From NCBI GenBank assembly GCA_029547805.1, contig JAKPOP010000017.1:1-64000 (forward strand): a stretch of 64,000 nucleotides of DNA, given 5' to 3'. The notes under the pieces were generated by a model. That model made no database searches. It was not told where the DNA came from and saw nothing but the letters and a program-made list of their open reading frames with translations. The stretch is from Deltaproteobacteria bacterium (GTDB lineage: Bacteria; Myxococcota_A; UBA9042; DTJE01). The position numbers and the translations under genes were made by a program. This document shows, piece by piece, positions 82-17,501 of the stretch; position 1 is the stretch's first letter; each line of letters starts with the position of its first letter.

Positions 82-271
82 GGACTTCAAACCCTCAGCC
101 CCCTGGACGGAGTCTGCCCAAATCCCTGCGGATCTGGGCCGCGACGCGCCGGGAACATGCCCGAGTCAGGCCTGGCCCCTTTACCGGTCAGTCCTGCCGG
201 ACCCCCAATGGCGATTGACGACGCGGGGCCGGGCGAGGGAGAATCCCCGCGGCCCGCAACGCGGAGGGTTC

Positions 272-970
272 ATGGGAAAGGTCTTCGACAGCGCGGACGC
301 CGCGGTGGCCGACATCCCCGACGGGGCCACGATCGCCGTCGGGGGATTCGGGCTCTGCGGCAACCCGGAGAACCTGATTCGGGCCCTGCACCGCAAGGGG
401 GTCCGGAACCTCACCATCATCAGCAACAACTGCGGCATCGACGGCGAGGGCCTCGGCATCCTGCTCGATGCGGGGCAGGTCCGGAAGATCATCGCCTCCT
501 ACGTCGGCGAGAACCGCCGGTTCGAGCAGTTGTTCCTGTCGGGGGACCTGGAGGTCGAGCTGGTGCCCCAGGGGACGCTGGCGGAGGCGATCCGGGCCGG
601 AGGGGCAGGAATTCCCGCCTTCTACACCGCCACGGGCGTCGGGACGCTCCGGGCCGAGGGCCGGGAGACCCGGGTCTTCGACGGCAGGGAGTACCTGCTG
701 GAGCGGGCCCTCCGGGCCGACTTCGCGCTGGTGAAGGCCTGGAAGGGGGACCGGGGCGGCAACCTCGTGTATCGGAAGACCGCCCGGAACTTCAACCCGA
801 TGGTCGCCACCTGCGCCCTGATCACCATCGCCGAGGTGGAGGTGCTGGTGGACAAGGGCGAGATCGACCCGGACCTGGTCCACACCCCGGCGATCTTCGT
901 CCAGCGCATCCTGCAGGGCACCGAGTACCGGAAACCCATCGAGAAACGGACCACCAGGCCCCGGGCCTGA
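272..970 (+). CDS. 3-oxoacid CoA-transferase, subunit A
   Basis: This 232-residue protein matches the alpha subunit of family I CoA-transferases (ScoA/AtoD/CtfA type). These enzymes move CoA between acyl-CoA and a free acid, typically succinyl-CoA with acetoacetate. The N-terminal motif [16 protein letters not shown] and the SNNCG segment are characteristic. The ATG at 272 is preceded by GGAGGG at 263-268; the frame can be extended to a TTG at 215, but those residues are low-complexity. Subunit B begins 11 bases after the stop, so the two are co-translated. Acyl specificity cannot be read from sequence. Confidence 0.92.
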
Positions 971-981
971 AGGAGGACCCC

Positions 982-1632
982 ATGCTGACACGGGAGGAGA
1001 TCGCCCGCCGGGCAGCCCAGGAGATCCGGGACGGTTTCACGGTCAACCTGGGCATCGGCCTGCCGACGCTGGTGGCCAACTTCCTGTCGCCTGACCTGGA
1101 CGTGACCTTCCACAGCGAGAACGGGATGCTGGGCGTGGGCCCCTTCCCCTTCGAGGGAGAGGAGGACCCGGACCTGATCAACGCCGGCAAGCAGACCGTC
1201 AGCGAGACGCCGGGGTGCTGCTATTTCAGCAGCGCCGACTCCTTCGCGATGATCCGCGGCGGCCACGTGGACATGACGATCCTCGGGGCGATGGAGGTCT
1301 CCCGGCACGGCGACCTGGCCAACTGGATGATCCCCGGCAAGATGGTGAAGGGCATGGGCGGGGCGATGGACCTGGTGGCCGGGGTGCCTCGGGTGATCGT
1401 GGCGATGGAGCACACGGCGAAGGGCCAGCCGAAGATCCTGGAGCAGTGCACGCTGCCCCTGACCGGGCGGCGATGCGTGCACCGGATCATCACGGATCTG
1501 GCGGTGATGGACGTCGGGCCCGGGGGCCTGACACTGGTCGAGATCGCGCCGGGACACTCCGTGGAGGACGTCCGGGAGGCCACCGGCTGTCCCTTCGAGG
1601 TCTCGCCCCACCTGCGGGAGATGCTCCTCTGA
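982..1632 (+). CDS. 3-oxoacid CoA-transferase, subunit B
   Basis: This is a 216-residue beta subunit of the same CoA-transferase. It carries the catalytic glutamate in SENGMLGVG, where the enzyme-CoA thioester forms, and the [15 protein letters not shown] segment typical of the family. The ATG at 982 follows AAGGAGGA, giving a good ribosome site. The length is normal. Together with subunit A it would feed or drain acetoacetyl-CoA or another 3-oxoacyl-CoA, in keeping with the amino-acid fermentation genes at 8385-13097. The stop overlaps the inferred CTG start of the next gene. Confidence 0.93.
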
Positions 1633-2426
1633 GCCAGCCCTCCGCCAGCCGATTCCGACTGGGGCGCCTCGGGGACCTGCTGCACCTGCGGGAGGCCCGG
1701 GAGGCGGCCCGGGCGGTCCCCTTCGAGGCGGCGGTCGTGCTCCTGTCGATCCCCCTGGTGATGACGACCTTCTGGTACTTCGGGCGATCGGGGTTCTACC
1801 AGCAATACCTGGAGCCCCTGGTGCCTCCGGACCTGCCCCTGCGACACCTCTACCCGTTCTTCTACTTCGCCCTGTCGTCGGTGGTGCTCCGGCTGCTGTT
1901 GCCCCTGGCGCTGATCCGCCTCGTGCTGCGCCGGTCGCCCGGGGACTACGGGTTCCGCCTGCCCCGGCGGTTCGAGTACACCTGGGCCTATGGCCTGCTG
2001 TGGCTGGCGGTGATCCCCTTCATCGCCCATGCGGCGGGGATGCCGTCCTTCCAGCAGCGCTACCCCTTCTGCGGCGAGGCGATCCTGCGGGACGGGGCGG
2101 TCCCGGTCCTGGACTTCCTGATCTACCAGGCCTTCTACGGGCTGGTCTTCGTCAGCGGCGAGGGATACTGGCGAGGGTTCGTGGTCTTCGGACTGCGACG
2201 GCACATCGGGGACCTGGGGATCCTGGTCATGGTGACCCCCTACGTGATGAGCCATTACGGAAAGCCCGCCGCCGAGTCCTATGCGGCGATCCTGACGGGC
2301 CTGGTGCTGGGCTTCCTGGCCCTGCGCCACGGGTCCTTCTGGCTCGGGGTGGCGGTCCACTGGGCCGCGGCCCTGGCCATGGACCTGCTGGCGATCCGCC
2401 AGCACGGATGGCCCTTCGCCTGGTAG
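1629..2426 (+). CDS. CPBP-type intramembrane metalloprotease (CTG start inferred)
   Basis: The protein has about 265 residues and several hydrophobic helices. Its C-terminal half resembles the CPBP (Abi/CAAX protease-like) family: a Glu/Arg segment (SGEGYWRGF), a His in MSHYGKP and a late GVAVHW motif supply the usual metal-binding positions. The canonical EExxxR is here GExxxR, so activity is uncertain. No ATG or GTG lies near the conserved N-terminus. CTG at 1629 overlaps the previous stop and has GGGAG 8 bases upstream; in-frame GTG/ATG codons at 1758-1761 would remove the first helix. It sits in the operon that continues into ruvX and the ABC exporter. Confidence 0.7.
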
Positions 2427-2438
2427 CAGGGAGGCGAG

Positions 2439-2870
2439 ATGCGGTTCCTGGCCATCGACTCCGGCACGGTCCGCTGTGGGCTGGCGACCTGCGACCCCTC
2501 GGAGTCGGTGGTGACCCCGGCGGGGGCGATCGAGGTCGGGCGGGGCCCGGACCTCGCCGAGCGGTTGCTGGCCCAGGCGGCGGCCCTCCAGGCCGAGGCG
2601 CTGCTGGTCGGGATCCCCAGAAACATGGACGGCACCGAGGGGCCTCGGGCCCGGGCGGCCCACGCCCTGGCGGACCGCCTGGAGGCCATCGGCCCCCTCC
2701 CGGTCTTCCGTTTCGACGAGGCCCTGACGTCCTTCGAGGCGGACCTGCGGCTCGAAGAGGCCGGGGGACGCCGAGGGGACCCGCGGCGACTGCGACGAAC
2801 AGGGCGCCGGGACGCCCTGGCCGCGGCGGTGCTGCTGGAGCGCTTCCTGGACCACCGGAGGAGGCCATGA
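2439..2870 (+). CDS. ruvX: RuvX/YqgF-type Holliday-junction-resolvase-like nuclease
   Basis: The 143 residues match the YqgF/RuvX family, whose members act in maturation of the 16S rRNA 5' end and resemble Holliday junction resolvases. The RNase H-fold motif AIDSGTVRCG holds the first catalytic Asp. VGIPRNMDGTEG matches the second family motif, DEALTS supplies the middle acidic residue, and the last acidic residue lies in DALAAAVLL. Length is normal. A GGAGGCG ribosome site precedes the ATG. The stop overlaps the ABC ATPase start as ATGA, implying translational coupling. Confidence 0.88.
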   Translation: MRFLAIDSGTVRCGLATCDPSESVVTPAGAIEVGRGPDLAERLLAQAAALQAEALLVGIPRNMDGTEGPRARAAHALADRLEAIGPLPVFRFDEALTSFEADLRLEEAGGRRGDPRRLRRTGRRDALAAAVLLERFLDHRRRP

Positions 2871-3649
2871 CCGAGGCAGCGGTCGAGGCCCGGGGGCTGT
2901 GCAAGGACTACCTGCCGCCCCTCACCTGGGGGGCCATGATCCGGGGACGGTTCCGGCGCACCCCGGTGCGGGCCATCGAAGACCTGGACCTCACGATCGC
3001 CGCCGGAAGCCTGGTCGCCCTGATGGGCCCCAACGGGGCCGGGAAGACGACCCTGCTGAAACTGCTGGCGGGCCTGCTGCTGCCCACGGCGGGGGTCCTC
3101 CGGGTGCTGGGACGGGACCCGGAGCGATCCCCCCGGGAGGTCCGGCAGCAGGTGGGCTACTGCATCACCGAGGGCCGATCCTTCTTCCTGCGTCTCTCGG
3201 GCCGCGAGAATCTCCGCTTCTTCGGGACCCTGGCGGGACTGCACGGGCCAGTCCGGGACCGGCGCATCGCCGACCTGCTGGAGGAACTGGAACTGGCCGA
3301 CGTGGCCGACCGGCAGGTCCTGTCCTACAGCGACGGCATGCGGCAGCGCCTGGCCCTGGCCCGGTCCCTGCTGCATCGCCCTCGTTTGCTGCTGCTGGAC
3401 GAGGTCAGCCGGGGCCTGGACCCCCGCCTCCGATCCCGGGTCCATCGCCTGGTCCGGGAGGACCTGGCCCGAAGCCAGCGGGTCACGGTCCTCTGGGCCA
3501 GTCACCAGGTGGAGGAGGTCGAGGCCCTCTCGGACCGGGTGCTGGCCATGGACCGGGGGCGGCTGGTGGCCGACGGGACCTTCCGGGAGGTCCAGCCGGT
3601 GCTGGACTCCCTCTTTCGGGAGGATCGGCCGGGGAGGGACCCGCGATGA
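2867..3649 (+). CDS. ABC transporter ATP-binding protein
   Basis: This 260-residue ATPase of the ABC-2 export type has a Walker A (GPNGAGKT), a signature region SYSDGMRQR (a Ser/Asp version of the usual LSGGQ), a Walker B LLLLDEVSRGLD and an H-loop His in WASHQ. It overlaps ruvX by ATGA upstream and the permease by ATGA downstream, so the pair is one exporter. The cargo is unknown. The architecture resembles lipooligosaccharide, drug or polysaccharide exporters of the NodI/DrrA kind. Confidence 0.92.
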   Translation: MTEAAVEARGLCKDYLPPLTWGAMIRGRFRRTPVRAIEDLDLTIAAGSLVALMGPNGAGKTTLLKLLAGLLLPTAGVLRVLGRDPERSPREVRQQVGYCITEGRSFFLRLSGRENLRFFGTLAGLHGPVRDRRIADLLEELELADVADRQVLSYSDGMRQRLALARSLLHRPRLLLLDEVSRGLDPRLRSRVHRLVREDLARSQRVTVLWASHQVEEVEALSDRVLAMDRGRLVADGTFREVQPVLDSLFREDRPGRDPR

Positions 3650-4470
3650 GCCAATGGTCCCTGGAGGCGAGCCGGGCCTGGGCCTTCCTGCGCCGGGACT
3701 TCCTGTTCCGGTGGTCCTACAAGTTCGGGTTCCTCTATGACATCGGCGCCCTCTTCAGCAGCCTGATCGCGCTGTTCTTCACGAACCGGATGATCGCCGC
3801 CGCGCCCCCGCCCTCGGTGACGGCCTACGGGACCGACTACTTCACCTTCGCCCTGGTCGGTGTCGCCTTCCTGGACTACATGTGGGTCTCGATGCGGTCC
3901 TTCGCCCAGCAGGTCCGGATGGCCCAGTTGATGGGCACCCTGGAGGCGATGCTCGCGACCCCCACCTCGCCCTTCCGCATCCTGTGCTACAGCGCCCTGT
4001 GGCCTTACGCCTGGACCACGATCCGGGCGGTCCTCTACCTGGCCCTGGGGGTTCTGGCCTTCGGGGCCGACCTCGGAGCAGTCAATGTCCTGTCGGTGCT
4101 GGTCTTCCTGGCGGCCATGATCGCGGCCTTCGCCGGCATCGGGATCGCCTCGGCGGCCCTGACGCTCTACCTCAAGCAGGCCGACCCCATCACCGCGGCG
4201 GTCGGGGGCATCTCCTTCCTCTTCGGCGGCATCGTCTATCCCGTCTCGGCGCTCCCGGAGGCCCTCCAGCCGGTCGCCTGGTCCCTGCCGATGACCCACG
4301 CGGTCGAGGGACTGCGCCGGGCCTTCCTGTCGGGCGCGCCCCTGGCCGACCTGTGGGACCACCTCGCGATGCTGGTCCTCTGGGCCCTGCTATCATTCCT
4401 GCTGGCCGCCGGGTCGCTCCGGCGGGTGATTCGCGTCCTGTCCCGGGAGGGGTCCTTCGGGGCCTATTGA
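3646..4470 (+). CDS. ABC-2 type transporter permease
   Basis: The 274-residue membrane protein has about six hydrophobic segments. It carries the family pattern near its C-terminus, GISFLFGGIVYPVSALPE followed by MTHAVEGLRRAF, which is typical of ABC-2 permeases of the NodJ/DrrB/LptF-unrelated export class. Its ATG overlaps the ATPase stop (ATGA), so the two subunits are coupled. A short cytoplasmic N-terminus precedes the first helix. Substrate cannot be deduced from sequence or neighbours. Confidence 0.9.
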   Translation: MSQWSLEASRAWAFLRRDFLFRWSYKFGFLYDIGALFSSLIALFFTNRMIAAAPPPSVTAYGTDYFTFALVGVAFLDYMWVSMRSFAQQVRMAQLMGTLEAMLATPTSPFRILCYSALWPYAWTTIRAVLYLALGVLAFGADLGAVNVLSVLVFLAAMIAAFAGIGIASAALTLYLKQADPITAAVGGISFLFGGIVYPVSALPEALQPVAWSLPMTHAVEGLRRAFLSGAPLADLWDHLAMLVLWALLSFLLAAGSLRRVIRVLSREGSFGAY

Positions 4471-4472
4471 CC

Positions 4473-5483
4473 ATGGAAGACCTGGCGCCAGCCCGGTTCT
4501 GGGAACCCGCCGACGGCCTGTCGGTGCGCTGTCATCTCTGCCCGGCCCGGTGCCTGCTGCCGGACGGCGGGGCCGGTCGCTGCGGGGCCCGGACCAACCG
4601 GGGCGGGGTCCTGTTCAGCCGGGTCTACGGCCACCTGAAGGCGGTGAACCTGGACCCCATCGAAAAGAAGCCCCTCTACCACGTGCTCCCGGACACCCCG
4701 GTCCTCTCGGTCGGGACGTCCGGGTGCAACCTGACCTGCGCCTTCTGCCAGAACTGGTCCCTCTCCCGGGCCCCGTCGATGCCGGCCCAGGAACCGGTCT
4801 CTCCGACCCGGCTGGTGGGGCTGGCGGAGCGACACCGGTGCCCCTCCATCGCGTTCACCTACAACGAGCCCACGATCCAGGCGGAATACGTGATGGACGC
4901 CGCGGCGCTGGCCCGCCGGCAGGGACTCAAGGTCGTCATGGTGACCAACGGCTACATCACGCCGGAGGCCCTCCCGGAGGTCTACCGGGACGTCGATGCG
5001 GCGAACGTGGATCTGAAGTCCTTCGACGACGACTTCTACCGGCAGCACTGCGGCGGAAGCCTCCCGGCGGTGTTGAAGACCCTCGAGGCCCTGGTGCGCC
5101 AGGGGGTCTTCCTGGAGGTCACCACGCTGGTGATCCCCGGCCTCAACGACACCCCCGAGGAGATGCGGCGGGAGGCGGCCTGGATCCGGGATCACCTGGG
5201 GGCCGGGACGCCCCTGCACCTCTCGGCCTTCCACCCCGACCACCGGATGCGGGACCGGCCCCCGACGCCTCGGAACACCCTGGCCGTTCTCCGGGAGGCA
5301 GCCCGGGCCGAGGGACTGTCCTTCGTGTACGAGGGCAACATCCCTGGCGGATATGCGACCACCGTGTGCCCCGGCTGTGGCAAGGCCGTGGTGGACCGAA
5401 CATGGTTCACGGTGACGCGGATGGACCTCACGGCCGGCCGATGCCGCCACTGCGGCCACCGCCTGCCGGGCATCTGGGAGTGA
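4473..5483 (+). CDS. amrS: AmmeMemoRadiSam-system radical SAM enzyme (AmrS type)
   Basis: The 336-residue radical SAM protein has C85, C89 and C92 in GCNLTCAFCQNW, binding the [4Fe-4S]-SAM cluster. An N-terminal Cys cluster (CHLCPARC, CGAR) and two C-terminal zinc-ribbon pairs (CPGC, CRHC) flank the barrel. The fold and FTYNEPTIQAEY match the pyruvate-formate-lyase-activating-like AmrS family. Its usual partners, MEMO1-like and AMMECR1-like proteins, are not in this window. It starts two bases after the permease stop and ends the operon. The substrate of this family is not established. Confidence 0.88.
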   Translation: MEDLAPARFWEPADGLSVRCHLCPARCLLPDGGAGRCGARTNRGGVLFSRVYGHLKAVNLDPIEKKPLYHVLPDTPVLSVGTSGCNLTCAFCQNWSLSRAPSMPAQEPVSPTRLVGLAERHRCPSIAFTYNEPTIQAEYVMDAAALARRQGLKVVMVTNGYITPEALPEVYRDVDAANVDLKSFDDDFYRQHCGGSLPAVLKTLEALVRQGVFLEVTTLVIPGLNDTPEEMRREAAWIRDHLGAGTPLHLSAFHPDHRMRDRPPTPRNTLAVLREAARAEGLSFVYEGNIPGGYATTVCPGCGKAVVDRTWFTVTRMDLTAGRCRHCGHRLPGIWE

Positions 5484-5510
5484 CCGACCCGTTTTCGGAC
5501 GCCTGCGATA

Positions 5511-8288
5511 TCACCCCGGGAATGGCCGATGGTGTGCTGCTATCCGCTCGATGTTGAATCCCGCCTTGGCCAGCACCAGGGGATGCTGCCGGATCATGTG
5601 CCGGGCCCGATCCCGGTCCGATTCCTGGAGTCGTTCCCAGGCCACATTGGCCGAGTGCCCGGGACCGGCGTCCTGGGTCCGCCACCGGTCATGCTCCATC
5701 CGGGCCAGCGTCTCGACCTCGCCGTCCGAGAACTGGAGCCACGGTTGCCTCCAGTCGAACCGGGGGACCAGCGTGCAGCCCACCGCCTGCAGTTTGACGG
5801 GAACATGTCGTGCCAGCCGGTGGTTCGAGTCCCGGTAACTGGCCGGCAGGCGGCACCACGGCTGGTGGGAGGCCCGGGCGGGGTTGTACCGATGGGCCTG
5901 CATCTCGTGCCGCAGATAGACCTGATGGAACTCCCTCGCGATGCCCTCGTAGGGAGCCTGCTCGAACACCTCGGGTCGGCACGCCTCCTCCCGCAGCCCA
6001 AAGAAGCGGATGCCCGGGCCCCGGCCCTTCTCCTTCTCCGCCAGGCGCGCCACTCCCCCCAATCCGGTGACCATCACCGTGGTTGCCATTCCCGGGAAGC
6101 GGTGATGCAGGCCATCATGGACCACTTTCGCGGTCAGGAGGCTCTGGGTGTCATGGCCCAGACAGACAAAGACCAGCGGGGGGTCATCCCCCTGGGAGGT
6201 CAATGGCTCCAGGAAGTCGCGATAGAACGCGCCCGTCTCCACGTCTGCGTCCACGGCCTCAAGGTCGGTCACCGCTGCCAGGGCCGGATATCGGGTGGTC
6301 AGCAGGTCTTTCACCCGGTTTGCCTCCCGATCCACCATCGTGATCCGCAGTCGCGGCCCAGCCTCGCGGAACCGCTCCTCCCCGGGATCCCACCAGTGCC
6401 TCCAGAACCAGGCATGGGCGGCCCGGACGATCAGGGACCGGCCCATCCACCCGGTCCCGACGATCGCCAGGCGCGTCCGGTCCACCTTCCGGAAGTCCAG
6501 GTCCCAGACGAGACGTTCCGCCGCATGGTCGAACAGGTTGACGCAGTCCACCTGGGGGCCCGTCGATCCTCGATCGGAGGCCAGGGTCGCCCCCCCCAGA
6601 ATCGACCCCCGAAAGAACGCCAGCAGGTAGTCGTCGGCCACGTGGGCGATCACCCGGCAGTCCCCACGGCCGCTCCGTCCAAGCATCTCCGCGACGTTCC
6701 GGGCAATCGCCAGGTTCGCCGCACCATCGCCCGTTGCCGTCACGACCAGTCGCGCGGACCGGGTCCGGGCGATCTCCAGCACCGGAGTCTCCATCGCATC
6801 TCCGACGACCACCGCCCCACCGGAGGTCCTCAAGGGAGCAATGAAGTCGCATTCCCCGTCGAGTTCCACCGCCACCACCCGATCCCCCTTCTTCCGGTAG
6901 CGGTCGGCGAGGCCGTAGCCGGTCTCCCCCAGGCCGCAGACCACCACGTGACCCTTGCGGGCCGTGGCCCAGAACAGGCGAAGTCGCTGGGAAAAGAGGT
7001 CCACGAACGCGGCCACCGCGGTCGCCAGGGCAGTGAACGGAGCGAGGAATCGCGCGAAGTTCAGGAAGCAATTGGGTGTCGCACTGCCGTTGTATTCCAG
7101 GCCGAAGAGCTGGATGGTCTGGAAGAAGGCGGCCGATCGGAAGAAGTCACACTCCTGCCCCTTGGACATCTCGCAGGCCTGACGCCGAAATCCCTCCAGG
7201 CCCAGCAGGAAGGAGGTCAGGAACATCCCGGCGAGGACCAGGGGCCAGGTGACGCGAAGCCACGGAATCCAGCGCCGGAGCCCCTGCCGCCCGGACCCCG
7301 ATTCCAGAGAGGGGCGCTGGACCCCGTATTCGCCCGCCTCGAGCAGGTCCGGGATCTTCCGGACCGCCTGCCGATCCTTCTCTCGATTCGGCTCGTCCAG
7401 TTCCAGGAACGGAACCAGGTAGGGAGAAAGCCTTGCGGCCACATCCTTCGCGGGCCCCCAGCGCCAGCCGGCCAGCAGCCGCTCGATCACCCATCGGCCA
7501 TGCTCGATGACCGCCAGCCACTCCACGTCCCCATCCGACAGGTCGAGCCCCTGCCCACCCTCCGACAAGGGGACAATGCGCCATCCCAGCAATTCCAGTT
7601 TCCGGTGCATGTCCTCGGCCTGACGGCAGTTCGACTCCCGCAGGTCCGCGGGCAGGTCCTCCCAGGGGGCCAGGGAGGGTTCGGGCAAGGCCCCCTCGGC
7701 CAGGCGTTCGTTCACGTAGGACTCATGCAGGAGCCGACCCAGGCGCTGGCGCAGGTCATCCGGCAACCGGGGAGCGGGCCCGCGGAGAAAGCACCAGAGG
7801 ACCGCCTGGTCCAGGGGAAGGGGCAACCAGGCACCCGGTTGGGCCTCAGAACCTGTCGGCTCCTCGCCGGTACTGCGGACCAGGGTTGCCACCTTGAGGC
7901 CGAGTTCCTGTGCCAGGAGGGCCTGACGTTCCGATGCCTCGTCGCCCCGAAAGAGGAGCACCGGGAGGTATCCTCCTGCCGACCGGGTCACTCGGGCCCA
8001 GAAGGACACCAGATCCCGTTCCTGTCGCGGGTCCAGGAACCTCAAGCCACCGGCGGTCCTGGAAGCCGTCTTCTTCCACCCCGGGTGCTCCCGGTTCCCC
8101 TGGGAGACAACGAACACCGGACCTGGAAAACCCTCCAGGGCCCATTGCAGAGCCTGCCACTCGGCATCCGTCGCGGGATCGCCCAGCACGATCAGGGGAT
8201 GCGGTCCTGCCTCGGTCCGCCCGGGGACCGAGGCATTCCGGACCCGTTCCGCCAGGCGCCTCACCTGGTCCCTCGAAGCCTCCTCCAT
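5511..8288 (-). CDS. RyR / two-TM / TrkA-N (RCK) protein with a second RyR copy
   Basis: This is a 925-residue protein. Residues about 30-170 look Rossmann-like. Residues about 183-320 match the bacterial RyR domain: ESN-QA, EVE-like DGDVEWLA, EHGRW, GWRWG and KDRQAVRKIP. Two helices (about 345-367 and 408-432) enclose a segment with a TIQLFGLEY motif and no K+ filter GYG. TrkA-N follows (GLGETG 452-457), then a second Rossmann unit (VGTGWMG about 610-616). The C-terminal RyR-like repeat (about 780-915) has lost the GW-G-D block. ATG 8288 is chosen because GAGGTGG precedes it; a further ATG and TTG upstream lack ribosome sites. It is likely a membrane sensor or conduit regulated by nucleotides, which is inference. 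It is transcribed alone and converges on amrS. Confidence 0.8.
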   Translation of the reverse strand: MEEASRDQVRRLAERVRNASVPGRTEAGPHPLIVLGDPATDAEWQALQWALEGFPGPVFVVSQGNREHPGWKKTASRTAGGLRFLDPRQERDLVSFWARVTRSAGGYLPVLLFRGDEASERQALLAQELGLKVATLVRSTGEEPTGSEAQPGAWLPLPLDQAVLWCFLRGPAPRLPDDLRQRLGRLLHESYVNERLAEGALPEPSLAPWEDLPADLRESNCRQAEDMHRKLELLGWRIVPLSEGGQGLDLSDGDVEWLAVIEHGRWVIERLLAGWRWGPAKDVAARLSPYLVPFLELDEPNREKDRQAVRKIPDLLEAGEYGVQRPSLESGSGRQGLRRWIPWLRVTWPLVLAGMFLTSFLLGLEGFRRQACEMSKGQECDFFRSAAFFQTIQLFGLEYNGSATPNCFLNFARFLAPFTALATAVAAFVDLFSQRLRLFWATARKGHVVVCGLGETGYGLADRYRKKGDRVVAVELDGECDFIAPLRTSGGAVVVGDAMETPVLEIARTRSARLVVTATGDGAANLAIARNVAEMLGRSGRGDCRVIAHVADDYLLAFFRGSILGGATLASDRGSTGPQVDCVNLFDHAAERLVWDLDFRKVDRTRLAIVGTGWMGRSLIVRAAHAWFWRHWWDPGEERFREAGPRLRITMVDREANRVKDLLTTRYPALAAVTDLEAVDADVETGAFYRDFLEPLTSQGDDPPLVFVCLGHDTQSLLTAKVVHDGLHHRFPGMATTVMVTGLGGVARLAEKEKGRGPGIRFFGLREEACRPEVFEQAPYEGIAREFHQVYLRHEMQAHRYNPARASHQPWCRLPASYRDSNHRLARHVPVKLQAVGCTLVPRFDWRQPWLQFSDGEVETLARMEHDRWRTQDAGPGHSANVAWERLQESDRDRARHMIRQHPLVLAKAGFNIERIAAHHRPFPG

Positions 8289-8320
8289 GGCACCACCTCG
8301 ATTTCCGGCCATGATCGCGA

Positions 8321-8349
8321 AGTATCCACGATTCCCCAACGACGGCCAA
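8321..8349 (-). promoter_or_regulatory. sigma70-like promoter for the RyR/TrkA-N gene
   Basis: Reading the minus strand, TTGGCC (8349-8344), a 17-base spacer and GATACT (8326-8321) form a good -35/-10 pair. The predicted start near 8314 leaves a leader of about 25 nt with GAGGTGG before the ATG at 8288. Recognised by eye only. Confidence 0.5.
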
Positions 8350-8384
8350 TCCGTTCGGGAGCGATGGCGGGGAGGTCCCGGGGA

Positions 8385-10682
8385 TCAGGCCTCGGCGCGG
8401 GGGATGGGCGCCAGACGCCAGGCCAGGTAGCGCTGGAAGGCCCGCATCGCCGAGTCGACGCTGCGGCCCACGACCAGGTCCTTCGCCCGCAAGGCGTGGA
8501 CCAGCGGGTCGTAGAGGGGCCCCGCATCGACCGTCACCAGTACGGGCTTTCGGTGGCGGCGGACCAGCGGCGGGAAGAGGTCCGGCAGGGCCCCGGGGGC
8601 GTCCACCCGATCCCGCCCATTCGGGTCCACCCCCGGCGGCAGGGTCTTCATGGCCGGGGTCAGCGGGATCACGCCGACCACCACCGCGTCCATCCCCTCG
8701 TCGAGCAGCATGGCCTCCAGGCAGTCGGCGTAGGCCTGGTCCCCGGCCATCGGCGTGATGTCCAGGGGGTTGCGCAGGTTCACGATCCCCGTCAGGCGAT
8801 GCCGTTCCAGGATGCCCTGAACCCGCCGCCGTCCCTCCTCGGACCACTGCCCCAGGCGGAACCGGGGCCGCTGCAGCAGGGCGTCGGCCATCCCCACCGT
8901 CTCGAAGCCTGCATTGGAGAGGCAGCCCAGGCGCATCCCCCGGACCTCGGTGTCCCGCATCTGGCTCATCATCGACAGGATCAGGTTGAACTCCTCGAAG
9001 GACTCGGCGACGTAGGCCCCGGCATCCCGCAGAATCGCGGCGCAGGCGGCGTAGTCCCCGCTGATGCTCGCGGTGTGGCTCGACGTCGCCGTGCGCCCCT
9101 CGGCGGTGCGCCCGCCCTTGTAGGCCAGCACGTCCTTGCCCAGGAGGCGGGCCCGCCGGATGGACCGGGCCAGCCGCAGGCCGTCGCCGGGCTGGAAGCC
9201 CTCGATGTAGAGCCCCAGCACCTCGACCTCCGGCTCCTCCAGCACCGCCTCCACGAAGTCCGTCAGGGACAGGTCCATCTGGTTGCCGGTGCTGATGGCG
9301 TACCGGGGGTCCAGGAACGGCAGGTCGTTGATCCGGGTGATCAGGAAGGCCCCGCTCTGGCAGATCAGGGCCACGTTGCGCCGCCCGCCCTCCTCGGGCA
9401 GGGGCAGTTTCGTCTCCGGGATGAAGAGCGTGTCGTAGCGTCCCGGCCGGGACCGGAGCCCCAGGCAGTTGGGCCCCACCAGCACCGGCGCCGGACGCCC
9501 CGCCTCCCGGGCCTCCCGGAGGGCCCTCCGGGCCGCCTGGTCCGCTTCCTGGCCCTCCTCGGTCTCCCCCATGCCGCCGGGGATCAGGACCATGCCCGCG
9601 GCCTTTCCCGTCGCGATGGCCTCCCCGAGGATCCCCGGCACCTGCGCCGCCGAGACGGCCACCACGACCAGGTCCGCCCTCCAGGGCAGGTCCGTCAGCG
9701 ACGGGCAGCAGGCGACCCCGTCCACCTCCGCCACGTCCCCGCGGATCACCCGGATGTCCGCCCGGGGAAAGCCCTCCCGGATCAGGTTCCGCAGGATGAT
9801 GCGGCCGGGGTTCACGTCCTTCGCAGAGACGCCGTAGATCGCCGCCGTCCTCGGTCGGAGCAGGGTCCGGATCCCCGCGAGGTCCGCCGGCCGGCCCTCA
9901 GGGTCCCTGGGCCGGAAGCGGCAGAAGGCGTCCACCGCCACCAGGCGGTCCCCCAGCCCGAAGAAGGGATTCACCTCGAAGTCGGCGATGGTCCACCGGC
10001 CTCCTGGCGCCATCGACACCTCCCGGGCCAGGGCCTCGAAGAAGGCCAGCGCCCTCCCCAGGGCCTCGGGCGAGGCACTCTGGAGGGCCTCCCGACTCCG
10101 GCCGGCCAGGCGCCGTCCCAGGTAGGAATCCTCCAGGCGCCGCCCCCACGCCTCCACGGGGGTCAGCAGCGGCGACCCCAGCAGGGTCCCCTCCCCCGGG
10201 CCAAAGGCCGCGGCCAGTTCCTCTGCGTCGAGCCCCCCGAAGCCCACCGCCAGGACCGGCCCGAAGTCCGGCGTATGCCGCATCCCCAGGAAGACCTGTC
10301 CCCCCAGGGCGGCCGATCCGGGCACGAACTCCGAGACCAGCACCTCCCGGACCGAGGCGGCCAGGTCGTCTCCGCCTCGTTCCCGAACGTTGGCCAGGAC
10401 CTGCCGGACGGCCTCCCGGATGGCCTCGGGGCGATTCGCCGTCACCTTCACGCCCCCCATCTCGGTCTTGTGGGTGATCCGGGGCGAGACCACCTTCACC
10501 ACCACCCGGTCCCCCGGGAGGATCCTGGGAAGGGCCTCCTCGGGCCCTGGGACCGTGAAGAAGTCCGGTGTGTCCACGCCGCCCTGGCGGAGCAGGGCAT
10601 AGAGTTCCGGCTCCAGCAGCGTGTCCCGACCCTCCGCGGCGGCGCGGTCCAGCGCCTCGATGAACGACTCCGTCCAGGCCAT
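8385..10682 (-). CDS. acetate/acyl-CoA ligase (ADP-forming), ATP-grasp and CoA-binding domains fused
   Basis: About 765 residues form an NDP-forming acyl-CoA synthetase that makes ATP from acyl-CoA, ADP and phosphate. The ATP-grasp part comes first (SPRITHKTEMGGV, ADFEVNPFF). Next are the CoA-binding Rossmann part (YGVSAKDVNPGR) and the ligase domain with the phospho-accepting His in SSHTASISGDY. Alpha and beta parts are thus fused in beta-alpha order. Starts at 10694, 10685 and 10682 are possible; 10682 has GGAGG at 5 bases. The gene follows iorB by about 35 bases, so it probably conserves energy from the aryl-acetyl-CoA made by IorAB. Confidence 0.88.
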   Translation of the reverse strand: MAWTESFIEALDRAAAEGRDTLLEPELYALLRQGGVDTPDFFTVPGPEEALPRILPGDRVVVKVVSPRITHKTEMGGVKVTANRPEAIREAVRQVLANVRERGGDDLAASVREVLVSEFVPGSAALGGQVFLGMRHTPDFGPVLAVGFGGLDAEELAAAFGPGEGTLLGSPLLTPVEAWGRRLEDSYLGRRLAGRSREALQSASPEALGRALAFFEALAREVSMAPGGRWTIADFEVNPFFGLGDRLVAVDAFCRFRPRDPEGRPADLAGIRTLLRPRTAAIYGVSAKDVNPGRIILRNLIREGFPRADIRVIRGDVAEVDGVACCPSLTDLPWRADLVVVAVSAAQVPGILGEAIATGKAAGMVLIPGGMGETEEGQEADQAARRALREAREAGRPAPVLVGPNCLGLRSRPGRYDTLFIPETKLPLPEEGGRRNVALICQSGAFLITRINDLPFLDPRYAISTGNQMDLSLTDFVEAVLEEPEVEVLGLYIEGFQPGDGLRLARSIRRARLLGKDVLAYKGGRTAEGRTATSSHTASISGDYAACAAILRDAGAYVAESFEEFNLILSMMSQMRDTEVRGMRLGCLSNAGFETVGMADALLQRPRFRLGQWSEEGRRRVQGILERHRLTGIVNLRNPLDITPMAGDQAYADCLEAMLLDEGMDAVVVGVIPLTPAMKTLPPGVDPNGRDRVDAPGALPDLFPPLVRRHRKPVLVTVDAGPLYDPLVHALRAKDLVVGRSVDSAMRAFQRYLAWRLAPIPRAEA

Positions 10683-10716
10683 CATGTCCTCCATGGATTC
10701 CAGCGGAAGCAGGGCC

Positions 10717-11484
10717 TCAGCGGCAGCGTGCCAGCGCCGCGTCCAACGGCATCTTGCCACCGGCCTCCTGCAGGAAGGCCTCGGCACCGGGGCCATGGAG
10801 CGCGACGGCCACCTCGTTGGCCCGATCGGGGTCCACCGTCTCGGGCGTGACCCGCAGGAGGAAGGAGTTCACCTGTCGCGTCGGGACCCCCTGGGTCAGC
10901 AATTGCTGCACGGTCCGGCCCACGTTCCAGCCCATGCGGAGCACCGCGAGGTTCCCCTGGACCAGCGCCTCCCCCTTCGCCTCGAAGAGCCGGCGCACGA
11001 AGGGCTCGTAGTCCGCCAGGTCGAAGGGAAGGAACGGCGTCGCCGCGCCCACCATGGCCATGTTCTGGGCCTTGGGCTGCCGCCCGGCCGCGGCGATGGC
11101 CGCCGCATCGACCAGCACGCAGCGGGGGAGGTCCAGGAGCGCCGACAACACGGCCGCCTCCTCCGGATAGTCGGGGATGTTCTTGTGGGGCGCCGTGTTG
11201 CTGATGACGACCCCCTCCCGGGACAGGTAGTGCAGGTAGCGCTGCACCTCCAGGGGCTCGACGCTCAGGATCATGTCCCCCTGGCCCTCGGGCACCAGGT
11301 CGCTCCAGATGGGGCGATCCGCGATGCGCAGGTAGGAATAGACCGCTCCGCCCCGCTGGGACATCCCGTGGACCTCGGCCTGCTTGAAGTGCAGTCCCCG
11401 GGACAGCGCCGCGTTGTCCAGCACGAAGGCGATCGTCAGGATGCCCTGGCCCCCGACCCCCGACAGGATGATGTCCGTCTTCAT
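10717..11484 (-). CDS. iorB: indolepyruvate:ferredoxin oxidoreductase, beta subunit
   Basis: This 255-residue protein matches the gamma-type domain of 2-oxoacid oxidoreductases. GVGGQGIL near the N-terminus and HGMSQRGGAVYS are classic IorB motifs. With IorA it decarboxylates aryl pyruvates from Trp, Phe and Tyr to aryl-acetyl-CoA, reducing ferredoxin. The C-terminal 50 residues extend past the core. ATG at 11484 has AGGAGGAG upstream. It lies 23 bases after iorA and before the ADP-forming CoA ligase. Confidence 0.92.
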   Translation of the reverse strand: MKTDIILSGVGGQGILTIAFVLDNAALSRGLHFKQAEVHGMSQRGGAVYSYLRIADRPIWSDLVPEGQGDMILSVEPLEVQRYLHYLSREGVVISNTAPHKNIPDYPEEAAVLSALLDLPRCVLVDAAAIAAAGRQPKAQNMAMVGAATPFLPFDLADYEPFVRRLFEAKGEALVQGNLAVLRMGWNVGRTVQQLLTQGVPTRQVNSFLLRVTPETVDPDRANEVAVALHGPGAEAFLQEAGGKMPLDAALARCR

Positions 11485-11507
11485 CGCTGCATCTCCTCCT
11501 TCAGGCC

Positions 11508-13097
11508 TCAGACCACCCCGCGCCGGAGGGCCTGTACGCAGGCCCGGCGGGCGATGATCACCGAGGTCCCGGGGTATTCGATCTCCCGGCGGATGATGGC
11601 CACCTGCTCCTCGGCCCGCATCTTGTGGGGCTCGATCACCTTCAGGTGGTCCGGGTCCAGGCCCAGACCCAGCACGATGCGATCCAGGTCCTCTCCGGTG
11701 GCCAGGGTCTTCTGGGTGCCGGTCATCGCGACGGTGCCGTTGTCCAGGATCACAACGGTGAAGTCCACGTTCTGGCGGATGGCCGTCAGCAGCGGGGTGA
11801 TCCCCGAGTGGGCGAAGGTCGAGTCGCCAATCGCCGCGACCACCGGCCGTGCCCCGGCGTGGGCCGCTCCGGCCGCCATGCTGATGCTGGCCCCCATGTC
11901 CACACAGGAATGGATGGCGTTGAGCGGCGAGTAGAAGCCCAGCGTGTAGCACCCGATGTCCGAAAAGACCCGCAGGTCCCCATAGGGCTTCATGGCCTCC
12001 CGGACCTCCAGGAAGGAATCGGTGTGGGAACATCCGGGACACAGGGTCGGGGGCCGCCCGGGGACCTCCCCCAGGGTCGGCCGGAGGCCCTGGGCCACCG
12101 GCAGGCCAAGGGACGCCGCAACAATGGTCGGGTTCAGTTCCCCGGTCCGGGGCAGCGTCCCGTCCAGTTTCCCTCGAATGGCCTTCCCCGGGATCCCCAC
12201 GATGCCCCGGAGGCGCTCCTCGAGGAACGGATAGCCCTCCTCGACCACCACCACCTCCTCGACCCTCTCCACCAGCGACCGCATCAGGTCCACCGGCACG
12301 GGGTACTGGCCGATGCGCAGCACCGGGTGGGGGCATTCCCCGCCGAAGGCCTCCATCAGGTAGTTCCAGGCGATGCCGTTCACCAGGAACCCCCGGTCAT
12401 GGCGGGGTCCGTCGGACAGCACGTTCCAGCGGGACGTCTCGGACCGGTGCAGCAGGTCCGCCTGCTTCTCGGTCAGTCTCCGGTACTGGATCCGGGCGTT
12501 CTGGGGCAGCAGCGTGAAGGTCATGGGGTCCCGCCAGACGTCCAGCGGTTTCTGAGGGACCCGGGGCCCCGGGAGGACCGACGCGCGGCTGTGGGCCAGC
12601 CGGGTCACCAGCCGCAGCACCACCGGCAGGCCGACGGCCTCCGAGAGGTCGAGGGCCTCCCGGGTCATCTCGTAGGCCTGCTGCTGGTCCGCCGGTTCCA
12701 GACAGGGCACCAGGGCGAAGTGGGCGTAGTAGCGGGAGTCCTGCTCGTTCTGGGACGAGTGCATGCCCGGGTCGTCGGCCACGGTGAGGACCAGGCCGCC
12801 GTGGACGCCGGTGACCGCCGAGTTCATGAAGGCGTCGGCGGCGACGTTGAGGCCCACGTGCTTCATCGTCACGATGGACCGGCGCCCGGCGAAGGACATC
12901 CCCAGGGCCTCCTCGTAGGCGACCTTCTCGTTGGCGGACCAGTGGGCGTGAATCCCCTCCCGGAGGGCCACCGCCTCCACCGCCTCGAAGATCTCCGTCG
13001 AAGGGGTCCCGGGGTAGCCATAGACTCCGCTGATCCCCGCGTGGACCGCCGCCATCGCAACGGCCTCGTCCCCCAGCCAGACCTCCCGGTCGCCCAT
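11508..13097 (-). CDS. iorA: indolepyruvate oxidoreductase, alpha subunit, without ferredoxin domain
   Basis: The 529-residue thiamine-diphosphate subunit has a pyrimidine-binding half (YGYPGTPSTE, SANEKVAYEEALG) and a PP-binding half (CPGCSHTDSF, SDIGCYTLG, GDSTFAHSG, DNGTVAMTG). Typical IorA continues into a C-terminal 2x[4Fe-4S] domain with eight cysteines. Here the protein ends shortly after VIIARRACVQALRR, exactly where that domain would begin. Electrons must therefore leave by another route or subunit. ATG 13097 follows AGGAGGG. It leads the iorA-iorB-acs operon. Confidence 0.9.
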   Translation of the reverse strand: MGDREVWLGDEAVAMAAVHAGISGVYGYPGTPSTEIFEAVEAVALREGIHAHWSANEKVAYEEALGMSFAGRRSIVTMKHVGLNVAADAFMNSAVTGVHGGLVLTVADDPGMHSSQNEQDSRYYAHFALVPCLEPADQQQAYEMTREALDLSEAVGLPVVLRLVTRLAHSRASVLPGPRVPQKPLDVWRDPMTFTLLPQNARIQYRRLTEKQADLLHRSETSRWNVLSDGPRHDRGFLVNGIAWNYLMEAFGGECPHPVLRIGQYPVPVDLMRSLVERVEEVVVVEEGYPFLEERLRGIVGIPGKAIRGKLDGTLPRTGELNPTIVAASLGLPVAQGLRPTLGEVPGRPPTLCPGCSHTDSFLEVREAMKPYGDLRVFSDIGCYTLGFYSPLNAIHSCVDMGASISMAAGAAHAGARPVVAAIGDSTFAHSGITPLLTAIRQNVDFTVVILDNGTVAMTGTQKTLATGEDLDRIVLGLGLDPDHLKVIEPHKMRAEEQVAIIRREIEYPGTSVIIARRACVQALRRGVV

Positions 13098-13125
13098 GGA
13101 GCCCTCCTGTTGCGTGAGACCCGAT

Positions 13126-13179
13126 CCGTCGCGGAGGCGACGGCCTGCCCCTTCTACCCAGGCCACGAACGGAGATCAA
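13126..13179 (-). promoter_or_regulatory. promoter and 5' hairpin of the ior-acs operon
   Basis: On the minus strand TTGATC (13179-13174), 17 bases, then TAGAAG (13156-13151) make a clear promoter. The expected transcript begins near 13144 and at once forms a perfect 7-bp hairpin with a 4-base loop (13143-13126, CCGTCGC/GCGACGG). Such a 5'-terminal stem may stabilise the messenger. Confidence 0.5.
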
Positions 13180-13194
13180 CCGGAAAATGCCCCA

Positions 13195-13224
13195 TTGACA
13201 AACTTTCCGGCGGACGGCGATGCT
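13195..13224 (+). promoter_or_regulatory. putative promoter of the methyltransferase gene
   Basis: A perfect TTGACA (13195-13200) is followed after 18 bases by GATGCT (13219-13224), a weak -10. The -35 lies 15 bp from the -35 of the divergent ior promoter, so the two promoters are back to back and may share regulation. Confidence 0.4.
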
Positions 13225-13264
13225 CTGCGCGGCTGGCCGAGCGGGACAACCGGAGCGCTGTCCG

Positions 13265-14026
13265 ATGGGGAGTCCTGTCGCCTTTGAAGACCACTTCGGG
13301 GACATGGCGAAGGACTATGCCCGCTACCGGCCGGTCTATCCCGAGTCCCTCTTCCACTGGCTGGCCTCCATCGCCCCCGGAAGGGAGACCGCCTGGGACT
13401 GCGGCACCGGGACCGGCCAGGCGGCCCTGGGACTGGCGCCCTTCTTCCAGACGGTGCTGGCCACCGACCCCTCTCCCATGCAGATTGCCCACGCAGTGCC
13501 CCACCCCCGGGTCAGATATCTCGTCGCACCTGCCGAGGACAGCGGGCTGCCCTCGGCCACGGTGGATCTCGTCACGGTCGCCGTCGCGATGCACTGGTTC
13601 GACCTGGATCGCTTCTACCGGGAGGTCCGGCGGGTCGGGCGTCCAGGGGCCGTCCTGGCGGCCTGGTGCTACACCCGGGCGCAGATCCGTCCGGACATCG
13701 ACGCCCTGGTCGAGGACTTCTACGACCGCGTGGTGGGACCCTACTGGCCCATGGACCGGCGAGTGGTCGAGGGGGGCTACGCCCGGTTGCCCTTTCCGTT
13801 CGACGAGATCACGCCCCCGTCGTTCGAGATGACGGCCCGGTGGGACCTCGGGCACCTGGCGGGCTATCTGGCCACCTGGTCGGCAACCCGCCGGGCGACC
13901 CGGGCCCTGGGACGCAACCCCCTCGAGGACCTGGAGCCCCGCCTCCGGGCCCTCTGGGGCGACCCTCGGGAGGAGCGGACCGTCCGGTGGCCTCTGGGTC
14001 TGCGAGTGGGCCGTCTGCCCTCCTGA
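13265..14026 (+). CDS. class I SAM-dependent methyltransferase
   Basis: The 253-residue protein has the SAM-binding glycine motif WDCGTGTGQ near residue 45, an acidic residue at the end of strand 2 (ATDPSP) and the post-motif MHWFDLDRFYREV. This matches the UbiE/Methyltransf_11 type and resembles trans-aconitate-like enzymes. The start at 13265 begins the FEDHF region conserved in the family; GCGCTGTCCG before it is a poor ribosome site. The substrate is unknown. It stands alone, divergent from iorA, with the transporter gene 110 bases downstream on the same strand. Confidence 0.82.
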   Translation: MGSPVAFEDHFGDMAKDYARYRPVYPESLFHWLASIAPGRETAWDCGTGTGQAALGLAPFFQTVLATDPSPMQIAHAVPHPRVRYLVAPAEDSGLPSATVDLVTVAVAMHWFDLDRFYREVRRVGRPGAVLAAWCYTRAQIRPDIDALVEDFYDRVVGPYWPMDRRVVEGGYARLPFPFDEITPPSFEMTARWDLGHLAGYLATWSATRRATRALGRNPLEDLEPRLRALWGDPREERTVRWPLGLRVGRLPS

Positions 14027-14135
14027 CCTCGGATCGGGTCCTCGAGCGATGGGATGGGAGCGTCGACGATTTCCGTGTATGGTTGGCCACCGGCGCCCGA
14101 GGTCCGGCGCCCAGGCGTGACCCCAGGAGGCGACC

Positions 14136-15536
14136 ATGACCGATTCCGAGGCTTCTGACACCCCCAGGCGGCCCCGTCCGGGAACCGCCGCGGTCATTGC
14201 CTACAGTGCCGGGAACTTCCCCACGGGATTCCTGCTGCTGGCGGTCGGGATCTGGCTGATGCGGGTGTACTGCCCCAACGAGCCGGACCGGCCGACGCTG
14301 GTCAGTCCGCTGATCTTCGGGGCGGTCTCCTTCGGGGTCATGCTGGTGGCCGGGATCATGGACTTCCTGGTCGGCTTCTGGTCCGACCGGAGCCGACACC
14401 CGGCAGGACGCCGGATCCCCTTCATCCGATGGGGCCTCTTCTTCATGGCCCTGTCCTTCCTGCTGGTCTGGTTTCCCCTGGATCACACCGGGGACGCGGT
14501 CTGGTGGGTCACCGACTCCTTCGGCCTGCACCTGAACGGGCTCTGGCTGGCCCTGATGCTCGGCATGCTCCACGTCTCCTTCACCGTGGTGGTGAATCCC
14601 TACCTGGCATTGATGCCGGAGGTCTGGCAGGACGGCCAGGACCGGGTCCGGGTCTCGGCCTGGATGACCATCTTCAACGCACCGGCCCAGATCTTCGCCT
14701 TCGCCGGTTTCGGCGCGGCCTCCTTCCTGCTGGCCGGAGGCCACCGGTTCCTGGGAATCCCCCTGGACAACGGCTTCCAGCTGGCCGGGGTCGTCGGAGC
14801 GGTGCTGACCGTCGCGGCCTTCCTCCCGCTGCTGTTCCTGGTCCGGGAGCCGCCCCACTCGGCGGACAAGGAGGTCCCCTTCGGCCTGTTCCGGGCGGCC
14901 CTCGAGACCCTCCGGAACCCCGCCTTCGTTCCCTACATCATCTCCGGGGCCCTGCTGATGGCCTCCTTCCAGTTGATCGAGGCAGCCCTGCCCTACATCT
15001 CCAACACCGCCCTCGTGGACGACCCGGCCGACGGGGACCTGGTGGCGGGCCTGATCCTGGTGGGCCTGGCATTGCTGACCGCCGCCTGGGCCCCCCTGGC
15101 CAACGTCCTCTCGCGCCGTTACAAGCGCCGGCAGCTCTACCTGATTTCCCTGGCGTGGTTCGCGGTGCTGCTCCCGGCAGTCTCCCTGGTCGGGCACGTC
15201 CCGGGAGTCTCGGCCCGCTGGCACATGGGGGTCGTCTGCTTCCTGCTGGCACCGGGAATGGCCCTGGGCCTGGTGGTCCCCCGGACCATCCTGGCCGACG
15301 TGATGGACCACGACATCGAGCGGACCGGCTACCGCCGAGAGGCCATGTACAACGGCATGGAGGGGTTGATCCAGAAGATCGCGATGGGACTGGTGATGCT
15401 GGCCCTCGGGGCCCTGTTCCACGCCTTCGGCTACACCGAGGACTCCCCGCTGGGCATCATCCTGAGCGGGGCGGCGGCAGGCGTCTTCGCCATCCTCGGC
15501 TTCATCGCCTTCCTGTTCTACCCGCTGGATCGTTGA
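14136..15536 (+). CDS. GPH-family (MFS_2) cation:solute symporter
   Basis: This 466-residue protein has about twelve hydrophobic helices. It has the glycoside-pentoside-hexuronide hallmark between helices 2 and 3, GFWSDRSRHPAGRRIPF, and the second acidic motif DVMDHDIERTGYRREAMYNG near residue 390. Members import sugars or other solutes with Na+ or H+; MFSD2-like relatives move lysolipids. AGGAGG ends 5 bases before the ATG. The substrate is not deducible. It converges on the lipoprotein gene that ends at 15567. Confidence 0.85.
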   Translation: MTDSEASDTPRRPRPGTAAVIAYSAGNFPTGFLLLAVGIWLMRVYCPNEPDRPTLVSPLIFGAVSFGVMLVAGIMDFLVGFWSDRSRHPAGRRIPFIRWGLFFMALSFLLVWFPLDHTGDAVWWVTDSFGLHLNGLWLALMLGMLHVSFTVVVNPYLALMPEVWQDGQDRVRVSAWMTIFNAPAQIFAFAGFGAASFLLAGGHRFLGIPLDNGFQLAGVVGAVLTVAAFLPLLFLVREPPHSADKEVPFGLFRAALETLRNPAFVPYIISGALLMASFQLIEAALPYISNTALVDDPADGDLVAGLILVGLALLTAAWAPLANVLSRRYKRRQLYLISLAWFAVLLPAVSLVGHVPGVSARWHMGVVCFLLAPGMALGLVVPRTILADVMDHDIERTGYRREAMYNGMEGLIQKIAMGLVMLALGALFHAFGYTEDSPLGIILSGAAAGVFAILGFIAFLFYPLDR

Positions 15537-15566
15537 CGATCTGCCCGGGCCACCGGGGATCCGGGG

Positions 15567-17456: not shown

Positions 17457-17501
17457 GGTCGTCCTCCGCCCCCGTCGCCGGGGTTGCCTGGTTCCGGCGG
17501 C

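What the first reader, a model, noticed from the sequence alone, without database searches (positions are those of the whole stretch)
5511..8288. RyR plus two-TM plus TrkA-N protein with duplicated, unequal RyR units
One chain has an intact bacterial RyR domain, a two-helix membrane hairpin with no potassium filter, two Rossmann-type units and a second RyR copy that lost its GW-G-D block. The repeat layout suggests duplication of a Rossmann-RyR module around a membrane-TrkA core. RyR in bacteria is reported near nucleotide-signalling systems; its ligand is not settled. A sensor or channel gated by a nucleotide is a hypothesis.
Basis: partly seen in the sequence, partly recalled or inferred. 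Interest (0 to 1): 0.7.

Follow-up and report, generated by a model that had tools for sequence, protein, structure and literature searches.

The report
Fused RyR-sensor membrane channel protein
A bacterial gene encodes a channel-like membrane protein that carries two copies of the nucleotide-binding module of animal calcium-release channels; its relatives often sit beside immune genes that make NAD-derived signals, so it is probably a signal-gated membrane effector, acquired recently by this Myxococcota lineage.

Summary
Window 5511-8288 (-) encodes 925 aa with two RyR units (the second has lost its pocket block), a membrane hairpin and TrkA-N.

Corrections:
- The hairpin is a 2TM pore module (TM1, re-entrant pore helix, TM2) with no K+ filter.
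- It is followed by two RCK domains. AF2 pLDDT is 86.9, and the best folds are TrkA and the NAD/ADP-gated channel GsuK.
- A third, N-terminal Rossmann domain resembles SLOG, not RCK2.

A 2TM-RCK-RCK-RyR family with one RyR unit, intact in most members, occurs sporadically in bacteria and one archaeon. The window protein is that core with a SLOG-like+RyR unit added in front. SLOG-RyR is itself a separate neighbour gene in relatives, so gene fusion explains the layout better than duplication, although the RyR tree does not decide.

Relatives lie in immune-type clusters: TIR, nSTAND1, patatin, RelA/SpoT-TPR-SLOG-RyR, Nudix. TIR genes lie within 6 kb of RyR genes in 6 of 14 genomes (0.25 expected).

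Best reading: a membrane effector gated by an ADP-ribose-type nucleotide. Against it, this genome has no TIR gene and no other RyR gene. The gene is probably a recent insertion, absent from a same-genus genome.

The parts
5511..8288 (-). whole gene: SLOG-like / RyR-N / 2TM pore / RCK1 / RCK2 / RyR-C, 925 aa
   Evidence: ORF; GAGGTGG upstream of the ATG at 8288; Pfam
7779..8207 (-). N-terminal Rossmann domain (res. 28-170), SLOG/LSDAT-like, without the GG(T/C) nucleotide loop of the partner SLOGs
   Evidence: AF2 beta-alpha fold; hhalign 25.0 vs SLOG, shuffle max 16.8; pairwise z 5.6 and 4.5 to two SLOG-RyR proteins, -0.2 to RCK2; Pfam LSDAT_prok itself not reached
7314..7760 (-). RyR unit N (res. 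177-325), intact 4-helix unit; H263, W266, S288, D305 = RyDEP H75, W78, H100, D117
   Evidence: Pfam, family HMM 4.6e-44; AF2 and Foldseek to RyR3 Repeat12; residue map through PDB 35tm
7167..7283 (-). TM1 (res. 336-374)
   Evidence: AF2; hydropathy
7071..7145 (-). re-entrant pore helix (382-394) and loop (395-406) FFQTIQLF-GLEYNGSATPN, no TxGYGD filter
   Evidence: AF2; family alignments
6996..7070 (-). TM2 (res. 407-431)
   Evidence: AF2; hydropathy
6519..6953 (-). RCK1 / TrkA-N (res. 446-590), GxGxxG
   Evidence: Pfam TrkA_N 9.7e-15; Foldseek TrkA, GsuK, MthK
5994..6482 (-). RCK2 (res. 603-765), GxGxxG
   Evidence: AF2 and Foldseek tandem-RCK matches
5544..5975 (-). RyR unit C (res. 772-915): four helices kept, pocket block deleted, D305 equivalent replaced by A895, H866 and W869 kept
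   Evidence: family HMM 3.2e-29; alignments; AF2
5482..8376 (.). lineage-specific segment: in same-genus genome G015 the flanks 211-5481 and 8377-17513 (87% identical) lie about 64 bp apart
   Evidence: blastn, junction alignment

Best explanation
It is a ligand-gated membrane effector. Shown: two RyR units, a SLOG-like Rossmann, a 2TM pore module without a K+ filter and a tandem-RCK ring module in one intact gene that is absent from a same-genus genome. Inferred: subunits assemble as a GsuK/MthK-like tetramer; the intact N-terminal RyR unit binds an ADP-ribose-type or other adenine nucleotide; the C-terminal RyR unit, which keeps its helices but lost its pocket, is a scaffold half that pairs with the N unit; ligand binding moves the RCK ring and opens the pore, depolarising the membrane. 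In relatives the ligand would be made by neighbouring TIR (or RelA/SpoT) enzymes during infection. The window gene is best explained as a fusion of two partner proteins of such a system, a SLOG-RyR sensor and a 2TM-RCK-RCK-RyR effector.
For: Domains. AF2 plus Foldseek: core to TrkA, GsuK, MthK; N-terminal half to RyR3 Repeat12, including entries with ATP, ADP and dantrolene. RyDEP, a PF02026 protein, binds and cleaves 2'/3'cADPR through H75, W78, H100, D117 (PMC13232231); three of the four are kept in unit N. GsuK is opened by ADP and NAD+ (PMC3510474). Family neighbourhoods: TIR>RCK-RyR>patatin with a 4-bp overlap and a 1-bp gap (Pfam); TIR>nSTAND1>RCK-RyR; Nudix>RelA/SpoT>SLOG-RyR>RCK-RyR; multi-RyR islands, one with two TIRs. 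TIR within 6 kb of RyR in 6 of 14 genomes, 0.25 expected, P about 9e-9. Fusion: the partners are separate neighbour genes in L039 and L045.
Against: The own genome has no TIR_2, TIR or ThsB_TIR match and no second RyR gene, so no signal maker is identified there. S288 replaces the phosphate-contacting histidine (also variable in the family). The RyR tree does not place unit N with SLOG-RyR. The pore has no known filter, so conduction is unproven. TIR enrichment may partly reflect general clustering of defence genes; the 6-kb limit was chosen after looking. AF2 was run as separate monomer halves only.
Confidence: 0.55

Rival explanations
1. A housekeeping ion-transport regulator or channel that senses cellular nucleotide or redox state (ATP, ADP, NAD) through RCK and RyR, with no role in defence.
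For: RCK rings and RyR Repeat12 bind ATP/ADP/NAD; a broader 2TM-RCK-RCK family without RyR is common in Myxococcota; no TIR in this genome; the gene follows iorA-iorB-acyl-CoA synthetase on the same strand.
Against: Sporadic distribution: RyR in 12 of 379 phylum genomes; insertion absent in same genus; relatives beside TIR, patatin, nSTAND1, RelA/SpoT-SLOG-RyR.
Confidence: 0.22
2. A decaying or orphan gene: the effector was captured without its signal maker, and the degenerate C-RyR and SLOG-like domain mark loss of function.
For: C-RyR lost its pocket and D; SLOG loop lost; no partner genes in the genome; GC3 0.82 vs 0.91-0.945 in neighbours.
Against: 925 codons without a stop or frameshift, RBS-like motif, intact N-RyR invariants, intact GxGxxG motifs, confident folds; lower GC3 fits recent arrival equally well.
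Confidence: 0.15
3. Internal duplication of a Rossmann-RyR module around a membrane-TrkA core. This concerns origin, not function.
For: Both RyR units share the same extended 4-helix layout; the tree does not reject N+C as one clade (p-AU 0.275).
Against: N-terminal Rossmann matches SLOG and not RCK2; SLOG-RyR exists as an independent partner protein; single-RyR relatives have no N-terminal copy.
Confidence: 0.1

Closest known systems
GsuK (Geobacter sulfurreducens), tandem-RCK multi-ligand-gated K+ channel (PDB 4gx0-4gx5)
   Same: TM1-pore helix-TM2-RCK1-RCK2 order; among the best Foldseek matches; nucleotide-gated
   Different: No TVGYG filter here; two RyR units and a SLOG-like domain added; sequence identity about 12%
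RyDEP, phage RyR-domain defence-evasion proteins (PMC13232231)
   Same: Same PF02026 unit; H, W and D of the 2'/3'cADPR pocket kept in the N copy
   Different: RyDEP is a small soluble phage anti-defence enzyme or sponge; here RyR sits on a membrane protein of the host; H100 equivalent is Ser
[quoted passage not shown] RyR3, 6uhh, 9l9b)
   Same: Fold and adenine-nucleotide site region; also attached to an ion channel
   Different: Animal RyR has a six-TM-type pore and a giant cytosolic shell, no RCK
Prokaryotic SLOG/LSDAT, TPR-S, RelA/SpoT, Nudix nucleotide-conflict systems (Pfam PF18171, PF20308)
   Same: The separate partner genes of the family carry these domains beside RyR
   Different: None of these partners is found next to the window gene; the original description papers were not in the library, so prior mention of the RCK-RyR effector could not be checked
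Thoeris (TIR signal maker plus effector)
   Same: TIR genes adjoin the RCK-RyR gene in several relatives; proposed ADPR-type signal
   Different: Effector is not a SIR2-SLOG ThsA; no TIR in the window's genome

Membership tests
RyR domain family PF02026 | score above Pfam gathering cut-off | tested here: met
   57.7 bits, cut-off 27.4, two stretches
RyR domain family PF02026 | pocket residues H75, W78, H100, D117 (RyDEP numbering) | tested here: inconclusive
   N copy H263, W266, D305 kept, S288 replaces H100; C copy H866, W869 kept, D replaced by A895, block deleted. Map assumes PDB 35tm is RyDEP with +1 numbering
TrkA-N / RCK domain | PF02254 above cut-off and RCK fold | tested here: met
   55.4 bits; Foldseek TrkA, GsuK, MthK
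RCK-gated K+ channel (GsuK, MthK) | TM1-pore helix-TM2 pore module | tested here: met
   AF2 pLDDT 86.9, Foldseek
RCK-gated K+ channel (GsuK, MthK) | TxGYGD selectivity filter | tested here: not met
   FFQTIQLFGLEYNGSATPN; filter absent throughout the RyR-bearing family
RCK-gated K+ channel (GsuK, MthK) | tetrameric pore and ion conduction | not testable with these tools
   monomer predictions only
SLOG/LSDAT superfamily | Pfam PF18171 match | tested here: not met
   not listed for P0001 at E<=1
SLOG/LSDAT superfamily | profile similarity to partner SLOG domains, GG-type nucleotide loop | tested here: inconclusive
   hhalign and pairwise scores above shuffles but the GG loop is absent
Thoeris defence system | TIR/ThsB gene in the same genome or operon | tested here: not met
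   no TIR_2, ThsB_TIR or TIR match in the own genome; met in some relatives
2TM-RCK-RCK-RyR family defined here | collinear 2TM, RCK1, RCK2 and C-terminal RyR unit | tested here: met
   own-genome core 841 bits to profile A1, built with the window row included; phmmer 4.8e-57 to the archaeal member L045

The most novel reading that the evidence does not exclude
The 2TM-RCK-RCK-RyR family is a new class of TIR-system effector: a membrane channel opened directly by a cyclic ADP-ribose signal through RyR units, i.e. a prokaryotic counterpart of the long-disputed cADPR-gated ryanodine receptor, with the window protein as a self-contained fusion.
Probability: 0.3. Interest if true: 0.9.

Novelty: new variant of a known kind. 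Interest (0 to 1): 0.62.

Why it matters
RyR domains are known from animal calcium channels, and phage RyR proteins were reported in 2026 to bind and cleave cADPR immune signals. A bacterial membrane protein that combines RyR units with a 2TM-RCK pore module, whose relatives sit beside TIR genes, would be the missing host-side receptor. It would also make the old question whether cADPR acts directly on RyR-type channels testable in a small, expressible protein.

Tried and rejected
A first scan of genome contigs with the whole protein found nothing; the alignment A1 worked. The viral-contig scan found no relative. PADLOC has no model for P0001. N-terminal Rossmann as a copy of RCK2: rejected. 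RyR trees to decide fusion or duplication: unresolved. Some neighbour ORFs came from a simple codon-usage gene caller of my own, so exact starts are approximate; that caller preferred an internal start (7826) for the window gene, which I rejected because of the GAGGTGG at 8288 and the N-terminal homology. The 2015 and 2020 comparative-genomics papers on SLOG, TPR-S and related systems were not held, so prior mention there is unchecked. No paper in the library combines RyR domain and TrkA.

Full report
OBSERVATION. The minus-strand ORF at 5511-8288 gives 925 residues without interruption; GAGGTGG lies just upstream of the ATG. Pfam finds RyR (two stretches, 57.7 bits) and TrkA_N (55.4 bits). 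Both RyR copies match a family-built profile over nearly its full length, copy 1 at residues 182-317 and copy 2 at 781-913. Copy 2 has lost the stretch that carries GW, GP.KD and the SPyLVPf loop.

ANATOMY. AF2 on the N-terminal 345 residues (pLDDT 87.1, pTM 0.85) gives a Rossmann domain and a four-helix RyR unit; its best solved folds are RyR3 Repeat12 entries, some with ATP, ADP or dantrolene. AF2 on residues 335-925 (pLDDT 86.9, pTM 0.82) gives a long TM1 (336-374), a short helix at 382-394, TM2 (407-431), two RCK domains and the second RyR unit with all four helices. Best folds are TrkA, GsuK and MthK. The membrane part is thus the standard 2TM pore module with a re-entrant helix, but the filter sequence is replaced by LFGLEYNGSATPN. 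Most relatives have an LF(x)xE/D-like motif there, so the loss of the K+ filter is a family trait. Only two hydropathy peaks reach membrane strength.

POCKET RESIDUES. A 2026 preprint (PMC13232231) shows that the phage RyR protein RyDEP cleaves 2'/3'cADPR and that homologues bind it, through H75, W78, H100 and D117. PDB 35tm aligns with a constant +1 offset to that numbering, which I take, by inference, as RyDEP. Unit N has H263, W266, S288 and D305. Unit C keeps H866 and W869, has Ala895 in place of Asp and lacks the block between. The histidine-100 position is variable in the whole family (H, S, T, N or A), so S288 alone is not evidence of loss. RyDEP dimerises through helices 1 and 4 and binds its ligand between helices 2 and 3 and the connecting loops. 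Unit C keeps the helices and loses the loop, which suggests a scaffold half paired with unit N (inference).

THE FAMILY. Searches of Myxococcota and of one genome per species found proteins of about 565-690 aa with the order 2TM-RCK-RCK-RyR and one C-terminal RyR unit, in Myxococcota, Acidobacteriota, Eisenbacteria, Verrucomicrobiota, Planctomycetota, Spirochaetota, a Mycobacterium, a Kiritimatiellota MAG and a Methanomicrobiales archaeon. RyR is rare: 12 of 379 genomes of the phylum, none of the 14 control genomes. A broader 2TM-RCK-RCK family without RyR, with a similar unusual pore, is common in Myxococcota. No relative that I found has the N-terminal extension of the window protein.

FUSION, NOT SIMPLE DUPLICATION. 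In relatives a second RyR protein lies beside the channel gene: RelA/SpoT-TPR-SLOG-RyR (Pfam RelA_SpoT, TPR-S borderline, LSDAT_prok, RyR), split in two in the archaeon. The N-terminal half of the window protein matches this SLOG-RyR protein through residues 115-318 (7e-35) and 92-318 in the archaeal one. The Rossmann part alone scores above shuffles against SLOG and not against RCK2. The SLOG nucleotide loop is missing and Pfam LSDAT is not reached, so SLOG membership is inconclusive. A tree of RyR units does not decide: neither N+C (p-AU 0.275) nor N+SLOG (0.261) is rejected. Fusion of two partners is the more economical account, marked as inference.

NEIGHBOURHOODS. L082 (G161): TIR protein, then RCK-RyR overlapping by 4 bp, then a patatin phospholipase 1 bp further on. 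L034: TIR, nSTAND1, RCK-RyR in a row. L045: Nudix, RelA/SpoT, SLOG-RyR, RCK-RyR. L038: SLOG gene overlapping RCK-RyR. L137: SLOG-like gene, solo RyR, two TIRs, DUF4062 fragment, RelA/SpoT-SLOG-RyR, Nudix, AAA-RyR and RCK-RyR within 15 kb. A TIR gene lies within 6 kb of a RyR gene in 6 of 14 genomes where 0.25 is expected from TIR counts and genome sizes (P about 9e-9; TIR positions). Caveats: the limit was chosen after seeing the loci, and defence genes cluster in general.

THE WINDOW GENE ITSELF. In the same-genus genome G015 the two flanks are contiguous at 87% identity and only about 64 bp replace the 2.9 kb segment. GC3 is 0.82 against 0.91-0.945 for neighbours. It lies downstream of iorA, iorB and an ADP-forming-type acyl-CoA synthetase on the same strand. 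So it is most likely a recent acquisition (loss in G015 is the alternative). The own assembly (96.7% complete) has no TIR_2, ThsB_TIR or TIR match and no other RyR gene. The signal source is therefore unknown, the weakest point of the mechanism.

MECHANISM. Shown: composition, predicted folds, residue conservation, presence/absence of the segment, neighbourhoods of relatives. From literature: RyR units bind ADPR-type signals (PMC13232231); GsuK is opened by ADP and NAD+ (PMC3510474). Inferred: tetramer, ligand binding to unit N, ring movement, pore opening and membrane depolarisation as an infection response. I give this 0.55, with a housekeeping nucleotide-sensing channel (0.22) and a decaying orphan (0.15) as main rivals.

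NOVELTY. Each part is known; the combination 2TM-RCK-RCK-RyR as a putative TIR-linked effector, and its fusion with a SLOG-like RyR sensor, was not found in the library. The most relevant older comparative-genomics papers were not available, so I call it a new variant of a known kind.

Noticed in passing
L082:6895-11469 (G161): Three-gene operon TIR > 2TM-RCK-RCK-RyR > patatin with a 4-bp overlap and a 1-bp gap: a compact candidate defence system better suited to experiments than the window gene.
   Followed up: partly
L137 (G383), L138 (G379): Multi-gene RyR islands: RelA/SpoT-TPR-SLOG-RyR, Nudix, AAA-RyR, SLOG-like genes, and in L137 also solo RyR, two TIRs and 2TM-RCK-RyR.
   Followed up: partly
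L069, L071, L075, L079 and similar loci: Widespread Myxococcota 2TM-RCK-RCK proteins of about 430 aa without RyR, with pore motif YYTLGLFVLGGLDLG and no K+ filter; function unknown.
   Followed up: no
L083:7403-11992 (G219): AAA-RyR-RyR gene followed by a gene whose N-terminus looks SLOG-like, with a weak SLATT_3 match.
   Followed up: no
L136:2024-2854 (Arthrobacter phage Stayer gp67): Phage RyR protein with an N-terminal extension that looks like membrane helices; annotated membrane protein in sister phages. Possibly a membrane-bound cADPR sponge.
   Followed up: no
L141:8388-8963: A remnant of a 2TM-RCK-RyR gene (C-terminal 191 aa only) beside TIR and a further large gene in G379, with the conserved HxxW histidine changed to Pro: a decaying copy.
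   Followed up: no
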